Source: Xanthobacteraceae bacterium | GTDB lineage: Bacteria; Pseudomonadota; Alphaproteobacteria; Rhizobiales; Xanthobacteraceae | Direction: 5' to 3' | Length of the DNA: 36,699 bases | Assembly (NCBI GenBank): GCA_030037895.1 | Contig: JASHPW010000006.1 | Span: 1 to 36,699, forward strand | Shown: piece by piece, positions 19,169 through 36,143 of the stretch | Layout: each line of letters opens with the position of its first letter | Position numbering within the stretch: position 1 is the stretch's first letter | The notes under the pieces: model-generated | What the model was told of the DNA's origin: nothing | What the model saw: only the letters and a program-made list of their open reading frames with translations | The model's database searches: none | Translations under genes and position numbers: made by a program

Positions 19169-19280
19169 CGCTGAATCGCTCCGCAGTGAGAAAGGAGGGC
19201 CGCCCAGCAATAGCCGGTTTGCCGCGCATTTTGCAACCCGTTTGCAATCCCCATGAGTGAGCCGGGCTCGGGCTTTCGCA

Positions 19281-20018
19281 ATGACCGATGTCCTCATTTT
19301 CATCCCCGCCCGCATGGCCTCGACCCGCCTGCCGGGCAAGCCGCTCGCCGATATCGCCGGAGAGCCGATGATCGTGCACGTGCTGCGGCGGGCCGAGGCT
19401 GCGGCGATCGGCCCGGTGGTGGTCGCGACCGATGCGCCGGCGGTCGCAGCGGCGGTGCGCGAGGCCGGCGGGCGCGCGGTCATGACCCGCTCCGACCACG
19501 CCTCCGGCTCCGACCGCATTTTCGAGGCGCTGGGCAAAGTCGATCCGGGACGCCAGGCGGCGATCATCGTCAATATGCAGGGCGATCTGCCGACGCTCGC
19601 GCCGTCCGACGTCGCGGCGGTCTTGGCGCCGCTCGCCGACAAGGCCGTCGATATCGGCACGCTCGCGGCCGCGATCAGGCGGCCGGAGGAGCGCGACGAT
19701 CCCGGCGTGGTCAAGGTGGTCGGCACCCCGGTTGCCCCATTGCGGCTGCGCGCGCTCTATTTTACCCGCGCCGCCGCGCCGTTCGGCGAGGGGCCGCTCT
19801 ACCATCATATCGGCCTCTACGCCTTCCGCCGCGCCGCGCTCGAGCGTTTCGTCAAGTTGCCGCCGTCGCCGCTGGAGCAGCGGGAAAAACTCGAACAATT
19901 GCGCGCGCTCGAAGCCGGCATGCGCATCGACGCGGCGATCATCGACGGCGTGCCGCTTGGCGTCGACACGCCGGAGGATTTGGCGCGCGCGCGCGCCGTG
20001 CTATCGAGGCGGCCATGA
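19281..20018 (+). CDS. kdsB: 3-deoxy-manno-octulosonate cytidylyltransferase
   Basis: A 245-residue CMP-Kdo synthetase. The N-terminal nucleotide-binding motif [15 protein letters not shown], the [10 protein letters not shown] segment and NMQGDLPTL are characteristic; the more usual QGDEP reads QGDLP here. It activates Kdo with CTP for lipid A inner core assembly in the cytoplasm. The ATG at 19281 matches the usual family start; an in-frame GTG at 19257 would add eight residues. The stop overlaps the pheA ATG (ATGA at 20015-20018), indicating coupled translation. Confidence 0.93.
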
Positions 20019-20869
20019 GGAAACGCAGGACGATCGCGTTCCAAGGCGAGCCGGGCGCCAATTCGCACATCGCTTGCACCGAGGCCTATCCGAACTACGC
20101 GCCGCTGCCCTGTCCGACGTTCGAGGATGCTTTCGCCGCGGTGCGCGCCGGCGCGGCCGACCTCGCCATGATTCCGATCGACAATTCGGTGGCCGGCCGG
20201 GTGGCGGACATTCATCACCTGATGCCGAAATCGGGCCTCAACATCGTCGCGGAATGGTTCCTGCCGGTGCAGCATCAGCTCATGGCGCCGCAGGGAGCGA
20301 CGCTCAAGACCATCAGGACGGTCGAGAGCCACGTGCACGCGCTCGGCCAGTGCCGCAACATCATTCGCGCGCTGGGCGTCAAGGCGGTGGTCGGCGCCGA
20401 TACCGCCGGCGCCGCGCGCGAAGTGGCGGAGGCGGGCGACGTGACCCGCGCGGCGCTGGCGACGACGTTGGCGGCGAAGATTTACGGCCTGCGCATCCTG
20501 AAAAAGAACGTCGCCGACGCCAAGCATAACACCACGCGCTTCCTGGTGCTGTCGCGCAAGCCGAAATGGGCGAACCGCTCCGAGCGGCGCGTCATCACCA
20601 CGTTCGTGTTTGAGGTGCGCAACATCCCCGCCGCCCTCTACAAGGCGCTCGGCGGCTTTGCCACCAACGGCGTGAACATGACCAAGCTGGAAAGCTACAT
20701 GATCGACGGCAGCTTCTCCGCCACTCAGTTCTACGCCGACGTGCAGGGTCATCCGCGCGAGCGCGCGCTCGAACTGGCGCTCGAAGAGCTGGAATTCGTG
20801 TCGCAACCGAACACGCTGAGGATTCTCGGCGTCTACCCGGCGCACCGGTTCCGCGAGCGGTTCAGATAG
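20015..20869 (+). CDS. pheA: Prephenate dehydratase
   Basis: A 284-residue monofunctional enzyme that turns prephenate into phenylpyruvate for phenylalanine synthesis. The catalytic part begins with [12 protein letters not shown], contains [11 protein letters not shown] and [10 protein letters not shown], and has the essential Thr in NTTRFLVL near residue 172. An ACT regulatory domain (about 190-275) follows, with the GVNMTKLES segment that binds phenylalanine for feedback inhibition. No chorismate mutase domain is fused. Overlap with kdsB at the start shows an operon, although the two pathways are unrelated. Confidence 0.93.
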
Positions 20870-22805: not shown

Positions 22806-22857
22806 GGGCGCCTCTGGGATCGGCCCTCAATATAGGAGCGAGCAGTGAATGGATATC

Positions 22858-22876
22858 CTCCCCCTTCCCGGGGGAG
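22858..22876. repeat. Short GC hairpin between pmm and polA
   Basis: ctccccc (22858-22864) pairs with gggggag (22870-22876). It may be a leftover half of the large palindromic class seen at 14247 and 16283, lying in the divergent promoter region. Confidence 0.5.
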
Positions 22877-22958
22877 AATAATTTGCCGATGCTCTTCGGC
22901 CTGCAATTATCCACTGCACCGTGCCAATCCGCGCCAAGCGACTATATTACCGGCCATC

Positions 22959-25900
22959 ATGCCCGCCGCGAAAAAATCCGAACCTGCCGCCAAGCCGGTG
23001 AAGAAAGGCGACCACGTCTTTCTGGTCGACGGTTCCGGTTACGTCTTCCGCGCCTATCACGCGTTGCCGCCGATCAACCGCAAATCGGACGGGCTGCAGC
23101 TCAACGCCGTGTTCGGCTTCTGCAACATGCTGTGGAAGCTGTTGCGCGACATGAAGCCGGAGGACAAGCCGACCCACCTCGCGGTCGTCTTCGACAAGTC
23201 GGAGAAGACCTTCCGCACCGAGATCTATCCCGCCTACAAGGCGCAGCGGCCCGATCCGCCCGACGATCTGCGCCCGCAGTTCAGGTTCATCCGCGAGGCG
23301 GTGCGCGCCTTCGATCTGCCCTGCCTCGAACAGGACGGTTACGAGGCCGACGATCTGATCGCCACTTATGTCCGCGAGGCGTGCGCGGCCGGCGCCACCG
23401 CCACCATCGTCTCCTCGGACAAGGACTTGATGCAGCTCGTCAGCGACCGCGTCGTCATGTTCGATACGATGAAGGACAAAAAAATCGGGCGTGCCGAGGT
23501 GATGGAGAAATTCGGCGTGCCGCCCGACAAGGTGATCGAGGTGCAGGCGTTGATCGGCGATTCGACCGACAACGTGCCGGGCGTGCCGGGCATCGGCGTC
23601 AAGACCGCGGCGCAGCTCATCGGCGAATATGGCGACCTCGACACGCTGCTCGCGCGCGCGTCCGAGATCAAGCAGGACAAGCGCCGGCAAGCGCTGATCG
23701 AGAACGCGGACAAGGCGCGGCTGTCGAAACAGCTCGTCACCCTCGACGATCACGTGAAGCTCGACGTGCCGATCGGCGAGCTTGCCGTGCACGAGCCCGA
23801 CCACAAGCGGCTCATCGCCTTCCTCAAGGCCATGGAGTTCAACGCGCTGACGCGGCGCGTGGCCGAATTTTCCAGCATGGATGCGGCCGAGATCGAGCCG
23901 GATGCGCGGCTGGCGGCGAGCGGCCTTTCCTCCGCCCCGCCGGCGGGGGAGGACGGCGAGGCCGGCAGGACCGCACCGGGTGAGGGGAGAGAGACGGCGC
24001 GGCAATTCCCCCTCGCTCGGCCCGCGGCGACGGCCGGTCTCTCCCGCAAAGGGAGCACCGAAGAACGCGCGAGCCTTCTCACCCCGCAGGCGCTTGCGGC
24101 CGCGCGCCTCGAAGCCGCGCGCACGGAAAAGTTCGACCGCGGGACATACGAGACGGTGCGCAGCATCGAGCAACTCAATGCCTGGATCGAGCGGGCGCGC
24201 GAAGCGGGCCTTGTCGCCGTCGACACTGCGGCCGCAAATCTCGATCCGATGCAGGCCGAGCTGTGCGGCTTCTCGCTCGCGGTCGCGCCGAATGACGCCT
24301 GCTACGTGCCGCTCGCTCACCGGCAGGGCGGCGATGGAGAAAATGCCGGCCTGTTCCGCGGCGACCTCGCTCCCGGCCAGATCGCCGAAGCCGCGGCGCT
24401 CGCAGTGCTGCGGCCGCTCTTCGCGGACATGGGCGTCATCAAGATCGGCCACGATTTGAAATTTGACTGGCAAATGTTCGCGCTGCGCGGCGTCGAGATT
24501 GCGCCCTACGACGACACCATGCTCATGTCCTACGCGCTCGATGCCGGCCGCTCCGATCATGGCCTCGAACCGCTCGCCAAGCGCATTTTCGATCACGCGG
24601 TGATCGATCTTGGCGAGTTGACCAAGGCGGGCAAGAGCAAGATCGCCTTCGACGGCGTTGCCATCGACAAGGCGACCGAATATGCCGCCGAGAAGGCCGA
24701 TATCGCGCTGCGGCTGTGGCGGGTTTTGAAGCCGCGGCTTGCCGCCGAGCGGGTGCTGACGGTGTACGAGACGCTGGAGCGGCCGCTCCTTGCCGTGCTC
24801 GCGCATATGGAGCGGCGCGGCATCGCGATCGATCGGCAGGTGCTGTCGCGGCTCTCCGGCGAATTCGCGCAGGAGGCCGCCGGCCTCGAAGTCGAGATCA
24901 ACGAGCTTGCCGGCGAGCCGGTCAACCCCGGCAGCCCGAAGCAGCTCGGCGACCTCCTGTTCGGCAAGCTCGGCCTGCCCGGCGGCACGAAGACCCGAAC
25001 CGGCCAATGGGCGACCGGGGCGCGCGCGCTCGAGGAATTGGCCGAGCAGGGCCACACATTGCCGCAGAAAATCCTCGACTGGCGCCAGGTCTCGAAGCTG
25101 AAATCGACCTACACTGATGCGCTGCCCGGATTCGTCAATCCGACGACGCATCGCGTCCACACCAGCTACGCGCTCGCTTCCACCACGACCGGCCGGTTGT
25201 CGTCGTCCGATCCGAACCTGCAGAACATCCCGATTCGCACCGAGGACGGCAGAAAAATCCGCCGCGCCTTCATCGCCGCGCCGGGAACGAAGCTCGTCTC
25301 TGCCGATTATTCGCAGATCGAGCTGCGGCTTCTCGCCGAGATCGCCGGCATCGCGCCGCTGCAGAAGGCCTTTCGCGAGGGCCTCGACATTCACGCCATG
25401 ACGGCGTCGGAAATGTTCGGCGTGCCGGTGAAGAGCATGCCCGCCGAGATCCGCCGGCGCGCCAAGGCGATCAATTTCGGCATCGTCTACGGCATCTCCG
25501 CCTTCGGCCTCGCCAACCAATTGGGGATCGCCCGCGAGGAGGCCGCCGCCTACATCAAAAAATATTTCGAGCGCTTTCCCGGCATCCGCGACTACATCGA
25601 GGAGACCAAGGCCTTCGCCAAGAAGTACGGCTACGTGACGACGCTGTTCGGCCGCAAGTGCCACTATCCCGACCTCACCGCCGCGAACGCCTCGATCCGT
25701 GCCTTCAACGAACGCGCCGCGATCAACGCCCGGCTGCAAGGCAGCGCCGCCGACATCATCCGCCGTGCCATGATCCGCATGGAACCGGCGCTGGCGAAGA
25801 AGAAGCTTTCGGCGCAGATGCTGTTGCAGGTGCACGACGAGCTGGTCTTCGAAGTGCCCGACGCCGAGGTGGACAGGTCGCTGCCGGTAATCAAGGCGGT

Positions 25901-25991
25901 GATGGAAGATGCGCCGCTGCCGGCGCTGTCGCTCTCGGTGCCGCTCGAGGTCGAGGCGCACGCGGCCGATAATTGGGACGCGGCGCATTGA
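22959..25991 (+). CDS. polA: DNA polymerase I with degenerate proofreading site
   Basis: A 1010-residue protein. Residues about 18-315 are the 5'-3' nuclease (FLVDGSGYVFRAYHA, QDGYEADDLIATY, GDSTDNVPGVPGIG). Residues 323-366 are a low-complexity linker encoded by a palindromic repeat. Residues about 390-600 are the 3'-5' exonuclease fold, and about 610-1010 the polymerase, with motif A SADYSQIELRL, motif B RRRAKAINFGIVYG and motif C QVHDELVFE all intact. In the exonuclease, Asp422 and Asp503 are kept, but the Exo I motif reads DTA (Ala424) where DTE is expected, and Exo III reads YAAEK (Lys579) where YAAED is expected; GQNLKYD of E. coli is GHDLKFD. Proofreading is therefore probably lost. 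ATG at 22959 begins the usual N-terminus; the open frame upstream runs through the intergenic hairpin. Confidence 0.93.
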   Translation: MPAAKKSEPAAKPVKKGDHVFLVDGSGYVFRAYHALPPINRKSDGLQLNAVFGFCNMLWKLLRDMKPEDKPTHLAVVFDKSEKTFRTEIYPAYKAQRPDPPDDLRPQFRFIREAVRAFDLPCLEQDGYEADDLIATYVREACAAGATATIVSSDKDLMQLVSDRVVMFDTMKDKKIGRAEVMEKFGVPPDKVIEVQALIGDSTDNVPGVPGIGVKTAAQLIGEYGDLDTLLARASEIKQDKRRQALIENADKARLSKQLVTLDDHVKLDVPIGELAVHEPDHKRLIAFLKAMEFNALTRRVAEFSSMDAAEIEPDARLAASGLSSAPPAGEDGEAGRTAPGEGRETARQFPLARPAATAGLSRKGSTEERASLLTPQALAAARLEAARTEKFDRGTYETVRSIEQLNAWIERAREAGLVAVDTAAANLDPMQAELCGFSLAVAPNDACYVPLAHRQGGDGENAGLFRGDLAPGQIAEAAALAVLRPLFADMGVIKIGHDLKFDWQMFALRGVEIAPYDDTMLMSYALDAGRSDHGLEPLAKRIFDHAVIDLGELTKAGKSKIAFDGVAIDKATEYAAEKADIALRLWRVLKPRLAAERVLTVYETLERPLLAVLAHMERRGIAIDRQVLSRLSGEFAQEAAGLEVEINELAGEPVNPGSPKQLGDLLFGKLGLPGGTKTRTGQWATGARALEELAEQGHTLPQKILDWRQVSKLKSTYTDALPGFVNPTTHRVHTSYALASTTTGRLSSSDPNLQNIPIRTEDGRKIRRAFIAAPGTKLVSADYSQIELRLLAEIAGIAPLQKAFREGLDIHAMTASEMFGVPVKSMPAEIRRRAKAINFGIVYGISAFGLANQLGIAREEAAAYIKKYFERFPGIRDYIEETKAFAKKYGYVTTLFGRKCHYPDLTAANASIRAFNERAAINARLQGSAADIIRRAMIRMEPALAKKKLSAQMLLQVHDELVFEVPDAEVDRSLPVIKAVMEDAPLPALSLSVPLEVEAHAADNWDAAH
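23926..24056. repeat. Palindromic repeat element inserted in frame in polA
   Basis: The stretch tttcctccgccccgccggcg and ggggagga (from 23926) is answered by ggtctctcccgcaaagggag (24036-24055), with ggtgagggg (23979-23987) and ccccctcgct (24008-24017) as an inner pair. The layout and wording match dispersed intergenic palindromes of Hyphomicrobiales. Here it lies inside the reading frame and encodes polA residues of about 323-366 (GLSSAPPAGEDGEAG..., rich in Gly, Ala, Arg, Glu), between nuclease and exonuclease domains. Confidence 0.65.
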
Positions 25992-25999
25992 CGCTCGCC

Positions 26000-26022
26000 G
26001 CCGCCGGGCCTGACCCGGCGGC
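26000..26022 (+). terminator. Probable polA terminator hairpin
   Basis: gccgccggg (26000-26008) pairs perfectly with cccggcggc (26014-26022) across the loop cctga, 9 bases after the polA stop. A second, gccgga-tcagg-tccggc type hairpin follows at about 26056-26072. No long T-run is present. The rest of 25992-26302 shows no gene and becomes AT-rich after 26185. Confidence 0.55.
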
Positions 26023-26192
26023 GCATATGTCCCCGTCGCTTCCTTCCGCAGGATTGCCGGATCAGGTCCGGCAACGAGAAGGAGTTCTCGCCGATACCGT
26101 GATGGCCTTGAGGCGCGGTCCCCCGCCGTGATCCGACGTGTTCGACGTCCATTTGCGCGAAACGCCATAAGGCCGAAGGGTAGCAATTTACC

Positions 26193-36053: not shown

Positions 36054-36143
36054 GGAGGGATGGCCGAGTGGCTGAAGGCGCACGCTTGGAAAGCGTGTAT
36101 ACGGGAAACCGTATCGTGGGTTCGAATCCCACTCCCTCCGCCA
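36054..36143 (+). tRNA. tRNA-Ser (anticodon GGA)
   Basis: A 90-base class II tRNA. The acceptor stem ggaggga (36054-36060) pairs with tccctcc (36133-36139), then discriminator g and an encoded CCA (36141-36143). The anticodon arm is cacgc-ttggaaa-gcgtg, anticodon GGA, reading UCC and UCU. A long variable arm with tatacggg and cgtatc and the T arm gtgggttcgaatcccac are as expected for serine tRNAs. Confidence 0.95.

What the first reader, a model, noticed from the sequence alone, without database searches (positions are those of the whole stretch)
24211..24695. DNA polymerase I with inactivated proofreading site
In the 3'-5' exonuclease domain of polA the Exo I motif DTE reads Asp422-Thr-Ala424 and Exo III YxxxD reads Tyr575-AAE-Lys579. 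By alignment with E. coli Pol I (D355, E357, D424, D501) two of the four metal-binding carboxylates are gone, and the QN of GQNLKYD is HD. Polymerase and 5'-nuclease motifs are intact. In the same protein the fold is otherwise kept, so this looks like recent loss rather than wholesale decay as in Taq polymerase. It would predict error-prone gap filling and altered repair mutagenesis.
Basis: partly seen in the sequence, partly recalled or inferred. Interest (0 to 1): 0.72.

Follow-up and report, generated by a model that had tools for sequence, protein, structure and literature searches.

The report
Pol I with dead proofreading site
The repair polymerase of this bacterium has probably lost its built-in proofreading activity, and relatives appear to have lost the same site many separate times while keeping the silent domain in shape.

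Summary
In detail: in polA (window 22845-25991, +) the Exo I glutamate is Ala (GCG, 24228), the Exo III aspartate is Lys (AAG, 24693) and the QN of Exo II is HD; polymerase and 5'-nuclease motifs are intact. "Recent loss" is not supported. Of 271 related PolA rows, 111 lack one or more of the four metal carboxylates; the tree needs 26 irreversible losses, still 17 after weak branches are collapsed. In the window's family 36 of 60 readable genomes are affected, elsewhere in the order 22 of 123. In the genus 13 of 15 readable species lack the Exo I glutamate. The domain is not decaying: scaffold residues stay and purifying selection continues, only looser. Best explanation: a non-proofreading Pol I with a retained structural domain, working like H. 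pylori Pol I. A 2026 survey already reports DEDDy substitutions in about half of bacterial Pol I (PMC12926913), so the kind is known; the dense recurrence within this order is what I add. No activity was measured.

The parts
22959..25991 (+). polA, DNA polymerase I (open from GTG 22845; likely ATG at 22959, MPAAKK)
   Evidence: ORF and translation; NCBIfam NF004397 1156.5 bits, cut-off 720
23016..23804 (+). 5'-3' exonuclease (flap nuclease) domain, motifs present
   Evidence: PF02739 and PF01367; DGSG, EADD, SSDKD, GDSTDN in the translation
24147..24740 (+). 3'-5' exonuclease (proofreading) domain, DEDDy fold, active site broken
   Evidence: PF01612 80.3 bits; AlphaFold2 pLDDT 89-98 over most ten-residue blocks of this domain, two loop blocks at 81 and 56
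24222..24230 (+). Exo I, Asp-Thr-Ala: Ala (24228-24230) in place of the catalytic Glu (E. coli E357)
24444..24467 (+). Exo II, IGHDLKFD: QN replaced by HD, Asp (E. coli D424) kept
24681..24695 (+). Exo III, YAAEK: Lys (24693-24695) in place of the catalytic Asp (E. coli D501)
24837..25979 (+). polymerase domain, motifs A (DYSQIELR), B (RRRAKAINFG) and C (VHDE) intact
   Evidence: PF00476 505 bits; motifs

Best explanation
This is an ordinary chromosomal DNA polymerase I whose proofreading exonuclease has lost its catalytic metal site, while the domain persists as a structural part of the Klenow module. In E. coli Pol I two metal ions are held by D355, E357, D424 and D501 (recalled). Here E357 is Ala and D501 is Lys, so the site shared by D355, E357 and D501 should not bind its metal, and a lysine in the pocket is hard to reconcile with two-metal chemistry. 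Shown: the residues, the register, the fold in a model, the recurrence in relatives, continuing purifying selection on the scaffold. Inferred: no 3'-5' exonuclease activity; mismatched primer ends are extended or left, so nick translation, Okazaki maturation and gap filling run without editing and lesion bypass is easier; replicative proofreading stays with DnaQ. In this lineage the glutamate probably went first (13 of 13 affected genus rows lack it; one, L008, lacks only it) and the other ligands drifted afterwards. The loss is tolerated and recurrent in the order, not a recent defect of this species.
For: Residues and register. Recurrence: 111 of 271 rows affected, no two rows identical over the Klenow part; 26 irreversible losses on the best tree, 25, 24, 21 and 17 after collapsing branches with SH-aLRT under 50, 80, 90 and 95; Fitch parsimony, which allows regain, 24 (5'-nuclease and polymerase columns only, midpoint root). 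Of the 111, 103 lack two or more ligands and 40 lack all four; K or R stands at a metal site in 81 of 111 rows and in 19 of 26 loss clades. Specific erosion: the four ligands are kept in 36, 21, 30 and 20 of the 111 rows, while nearby conserved residues stay: K539 111, D557 111, D619 107, E616 105. Selection: 33 disjoint lost-lost pairs have exo-domain omega median 0.199 (range 0.071-0.741), 16 intact pairs 0.170; exo/pol ratio 2.32 against 1.85, one-sided Mann-Whitney p 0.024. Fixed-topology branch lengths exo/pol: 13.94/5.20 on lost, 12.38/8.51 on intact, 7.48/2.31 on branches where a loss enters. Fold: AlphaFold2 of the window's Klenow part, mean pLDDT 90.7, nearly the same secondary structure as the intact L006 at 91.7; best Foldseek match Klenow 1d8y, whose sequence has Ala at both Exo I acids. 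A reason to keep the shell: Klenow variants cut free of this domain were mostly poorly soluble (PMC6457538, passages).
Against: No activity was measured. The D355 and D424 equivalents remain, so weak residual activity cannot be excluded from sequence. In the genus two species (L006, L016) are intact, a sixth-contig fragment of another (L019, G019) has the Exo III aspartate, and one single loss in the genus is not rejected (AU p 0.296), so the number of losses inside the genus is open. PolA is one gene; transfer of intact copies could change the counts. Omega by Nei-Gojobori on GC-rich genes is rough: over all pairs with pol dS up to 0.9 the exo medians were 0.447 (lost) and 0.384 (intact), with a maximum of 1.09 among lost pairs. 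The same solubility paper found a re-engineered polymerase without the domain to be about as stable as Klenow, though ten-fold less efficient, so the shell is not strictly needed.
Confidence: 0.86

Rival explanations
1. The loss is recent in this species, a chance knock-out not yet followed by decay.
For: Exo I Asp, Exo II Asp and Exo III Tyr are still present and the fold is kept.
Against: 13 of 15 readable species of the genus lack the same glutamate; the scaffold is kept over the lost rows as a whole, which include a 32-row, mostly Bradyrhizobium clade with no intact member.
Confidence: 0.06
2. The domain keeps a residual or altered 3'-5' exonuclease activity using the remaining D355 and D424 and neighbouring acids (E616, D619).
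For: E616 and D619 are kept in 105 and 107 of 111 affected rows.
Against: They are kept in 160 of 160 intact rows too, so they are not newly recruited; K617 sits in the metal site; H. pylori Pol I with three acids lost had no activity.
Confidence: 0.08
3. Loss is adaptive: selection repeatedly turned Pol I into a lesion-tolerant gap filler in lineages that also carry the DnaE2 mutasome.
For: Many separate losses in one order; of 58 family genomes scored, those without DnaE2 are 4 intact and 1 lost, those with it 18 intact and 35 lost.
Against: Fisher p 0.063, no correction for kinship; DnaE2 presence was judged by hand from the bit scores, with G022 and G038 (both intact) left out as doubtful. 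Relaxed constraint explains recurrence without adaptation.
Confidence: 0.12
4. Another exonuclease now proofreads for Pol I in trans, which made the intrinsic site dispensable.
For: The genome has two further PF01612 proteins (L001, L002); L001 shows intact DEDD motifs by eye.
Against: 54 of 61 family genomes have three PF01612 matches, lost and intact alike (counts read by eye, the list of places was cut), so the extra nucleases do not visibly track the loss.
Confidence: 0.04
5. Sequencing, assembly or gene-calling artefact.
For: The assembly is fragmented (148 contigs, 89.88% complete).
Against: One open frame over the whole protein; related species show changes at the same sites.
Confidence: 0.01

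Closest known systems
Helicobacter pylori DNA polymerase I (HP1470)
   Same: Pol I with exonuclease fold likely kept and metal acids lost; measured: no mismatch removal, extends mismatched primers, mutagenic translesion synthesis (PMC3121766, abstract and passages).
   Different: There the D355, D424 and D501 equivalents are missing; here E357 and D501. H. pylori lacks translesion polymerases; this genome has DnaE2 and two Y-family matches.
PolA1 with substituted DEDDy motif in the 2026 survey (Timinskas et al., PMC12926913)
   Same: The survey finds such substitutions in about half of PolA1 (abstract, section 15 and passages read).
   Different: It calls the loss largely phylum-specific, commonest in Firmicutes, Tenericutes and Actinobacteria; its main text does not contain the words Alphaproteobacteria, Hyphomicrobiales or Bradyrhizobium (supplements not read). 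Here loss is scattered within one order and one family.
E. coli Klenow fragment, exo-minus form (1d8y)
   Same: Best solved-structure match by fold, 45% identity.
   Different: Ala at both Exo I acids, engineered (recalled); here one Exo I acid and the Exo III acid are changed by nature.
Bacillus stearothermophilus and Mycobacterium Pol I large fragments (2bdp, 6vde)
   Same: Solved Pol I fragments found by sequence; known to lack proofreading (recalled; organism of 6vde recalled).
   Different: More distant by sequence score than E. coli Klenow; their active sites were not compared here.

Membership tests
DNA polymerase I (PolA1) | 5' nuclease + exonuclease-fold + polymerase domains in one chain | tested here: met
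   Pfam; NF004397 and TIGR00593 over their cut-offs
DNA polymerase I (PolA1) | polymerase motifs A, B, C intact | tested here: met
   DYSQIELR, RRRAKAINFG, VHDE
Active DEDDy 3'-5' exonuclease | four metal-binding acids D-E-D-D | tested here: not met
   D-A-D-K in the window
Active DEDDy 3'-5' exonuclease | Exo III tyrosine | tested here: met
   Y613 (numbered from GTG 22845) kept
Active DEDDy 3'-5' exonuclease | 3'-5' degradation of a mismatched primer | not testable with these tools
   needs purified protein
Proofreading-dead Pol I (as in H. pylori) | fold kept, metal acids lost | tested here: met
   (fold by model only)
Proofreading-dead Pol I (as in H. pylori) | measured lack of proofreading and mismatch extension | not testable with these tools
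   needs enzymology

The most novel reading that the evidence does not exclude
In this order, loss of Pol I proofreading is convergent and adaptive: in lineages with a DnaE2 mutasome, Pol I has been repeatedly turned into a lesion-tolerant gap filler, and the emptied exonuclease pocket (often filled by K or R) is kept as a DNA-holding or stabilising shell.
Probability: 0.12. Interest if true: 0.7.

Novelty: new member of a known kind. Interest (0 to 1): 0.38.

Why it matters
Close relatives with and without a Pol I proofreading site, many times over in one order, form natural replicates for asking what Pol I proofreading is worth to a cell and which conditions let it go. It also suggests that a label such as 'Pol I with 3'-5' exonuclease' is wrong for many genomes of the order: 28 of 28 rows whose record title names Bradyrhizobium, and the Nitrobacter winogradskyi and Rhodopseudomonas infernalis rows, though a Rhodopseudomonas MAG (L065) is intact.

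Tried and rejected
Stand-alone exonuclease as a stand-in: PF01612 counts look the same in lost and intact genomes (by eye). DnaE2 link: weak (p 0.063, kinship not corrected, presence judged by hand; G022 and G038 left out as doubtful, G071 had no readable exonuclease). Single or multiple loss in the genus: not decidable. Earlier trees: FastTree of 148 rows, 16 changes by parsimony, 12 forced by starred branches, but it wrongly counted L106 as lost (its Exo I is missing from its open frame); IQ-TREE of 147 rows without L106, 24 irreversible losses, 10 after collapse at 95. The position of the window's six-row lost clade (SH-aLRT 94.4) was not resolved by the careful genus tree.

G054 is counted as lost by its L163. 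Of the 61 family genomes, G071 could not be read; of 126 order genomes outside the family (drawn with completeness 90 or more), G099, G117 and G203 were not fetched. The 80 loci are those most like the query, kept from 590, so the 271-row total is not an even sample; the family and order tallies use evenly drawn genomes.

Literature: searches (6 of 6 papers listed; 10 of 81; 3 of 3) showed, by title and start of abstract, nothing on Pol I proofreading loss in rhizobia or Alphaproteobacteria. Passages of PMC6403173 treat Pol I length and loss of whole domains in Proteobacteria; I saw no point losses there.

Full report
What is there. The window is contig C63 of an assembly of 3,270,626 bases in 148 contigs, 89.88% complete. 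Its polA runs from GTG 22845 (likely ATG 22959) to 25991 on the + strand. All domains of Pol I are present. The exonuclease motifs read DTA, IGHDLKFD and YAAEK; aligned to E. coli Klenow they put Ala opposite E357 and Lys opposite D501, with D355, D424 and Y497 kept (E. coli numbers partly recalled). Named near relatives of the protein are Bradyrhizobium and other Hyphomicrobiales.

Is it particular to this genome? No. In the genus 20 genomes were searched, 19 had a match, and 15 rows cover all three motifs: 13 lack at least the Exo I glutamate, two (L006, L016) are intact. A fragment from a further genome (L019) shows only Exo III, with its aspartate. The replacements at the glutamate differ (A, G, L, Q, M, S, V), and the number of ligands lost runs from one (L008, D-Q-D-D) to four (L005, L009, L011). 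In the family, 61 genomes drawn evenly, 60 could be read: 36 lost, 24 intact. In the rest of the order, 123 of 126 drawn genomes were read: 22 lost, 101 intact, the losses in 8 other families (the 124 rows include L170, which is of the window's family).

How often was it lost? With the exonuclease columns left out of the tree, 271 rows (111 lost, 160 intact) need 24 changes by parsimony, 26 if a dead site cannot be regained, and still 17 when branches with SH-aLRT under 95 are collapsed in the way that favours fewer losses. A smaller tree of 147 rows gave 24, and 10 after the same collapse. Inside the genus the branching is unresolved and one loss is not rejected, so I claim recurrence for the order, not for the genus.

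How does the domain evolve afterwards? It does not fall apart. In the 111 lost rows the four ligands survive in 36, 21, 30 and 20 rows and the Exo III tyrosine in 73, but other residues survive nearly everywhere: K539, D557 and G568 in 111, Y487 in 110, D619 in 107, E616 in 105. One search lists kept and gone columns for the 147-row set. Relative to the polymerase domain, the exonuclease domain evolves about 1.8 times faster on lost branches than on intact ones (2.68 against 1.45; 3.24 on branches where a loss enters). By codons in disjoint pairs the difference is modest (2.32 against 1.85, one-sided p 0.024), and omega stays under 1 in 33 of 33 lost pairs (median 0.199, range 0.071-0.741); in the wider set of all pairs it reached 1.09. 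Looser but real constraint is what a shell that must fold would show. That Klenow variants without this domain were mostly poorly soluble (PMC6457538, passages) offers a plain reason, although the same paper's re-engineered version was stable and ten-fold less efficient.

Structure. AlphaFold2 models of the window's Klenow part and of the intact L006 have mean pLDDT 90.7 and 91.7 and nearly the same secondary structure. Foldseek's best match for the window model is Klenow 1d8y, TM 0.85/0.88. I had no coordinates, so pocket geometry was not measured.

What it probably does. A Pol I that cannot edit. The closest measured case is H. pylori Pol I: three acids lost, fold likely kept, no mismatch removal, mismatch extension and translesion synthesis (PMC3121766, passages; that paper cites E. 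coli work in which loss of Pol I proofreading gives a mutator biased to the lagging strand). Here replicative proofreading should be intact: a DnaQ scores 256.8 bits over a cut-off of 222.7. DnaE2 is on contig C75; of two Y-family matches, a strong one on C61 I take for DinB and a weak one beside DnaE2 for ImuB (names inferred). Whether the loss is merely tolerated or favoured cannot be told. The one association tried, with DnaE2, is weak: 4 intact and 1 lost without it, 18 intact and 35 lost with it, Fisher p 0.063, kinship not corrected, presence judged by hand, two intact genomes left out as doubtful. PF01612 copy number does not visibly track the loss: 54 of 61 genomes have three.

What is known. 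The 2026 survey of bacterial polymerases (PMC12926913; abstract, section 15 and passages read; supplements not read) states that about half of Pol I orthologs have DEDDy substitutions, largely by phylum, commonest in Firmicutes, Tenericutes and Actinobacteria. The phenomenon is known in kind. I did not find in print the repeated loss within this order (searches, judged from listings; open-licence library only).

Noticed in passing
L163 and L169 (G054): One assembly holds two polA genes: one with a dead exonuclease site (E-I-K-C) and one, 50% identical to the window's, with an intact site. Contamination (listed 5%) is not excluded.
   Followed up: no
L188, L193, L199, L205 (f32); L220, L224-L226 (f29); L289-L292 (f4): Three other families of the order have no intact site in any of the four rows read of each; the four f4 genomes are only 1.3-1.4 Mb.
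   Followed up: partly
271-row set: Among 8 rows with a single ligand changed, the change is at D355 (3), E357 (3) or D501 (2), never at D424 alone. Some of these rows are close kin, so they are fewer events.
   Followed up: no
L085: A record titled Frankia sp. RB7 carries a polA that falls among the Bradyrhizobium rows; probably a mislabelled record.
   Followed up: no
22947-26186 (-): A 1079-codon open frame lies antisense over nearly all of polA; in this GC-rich DNA it is most likely a shadow of the polA frame.
   Followed up: no
36054-36140 (+): A tRNA gene, the only Rfam match over threshold in the window (60.5 bits).
   Followed up: no
19253-20869 (+): A prephenate dehydratase domain sits at residues 261-437 of a 538-residue frame; the true start may lie further downstream.
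   Followed up: no
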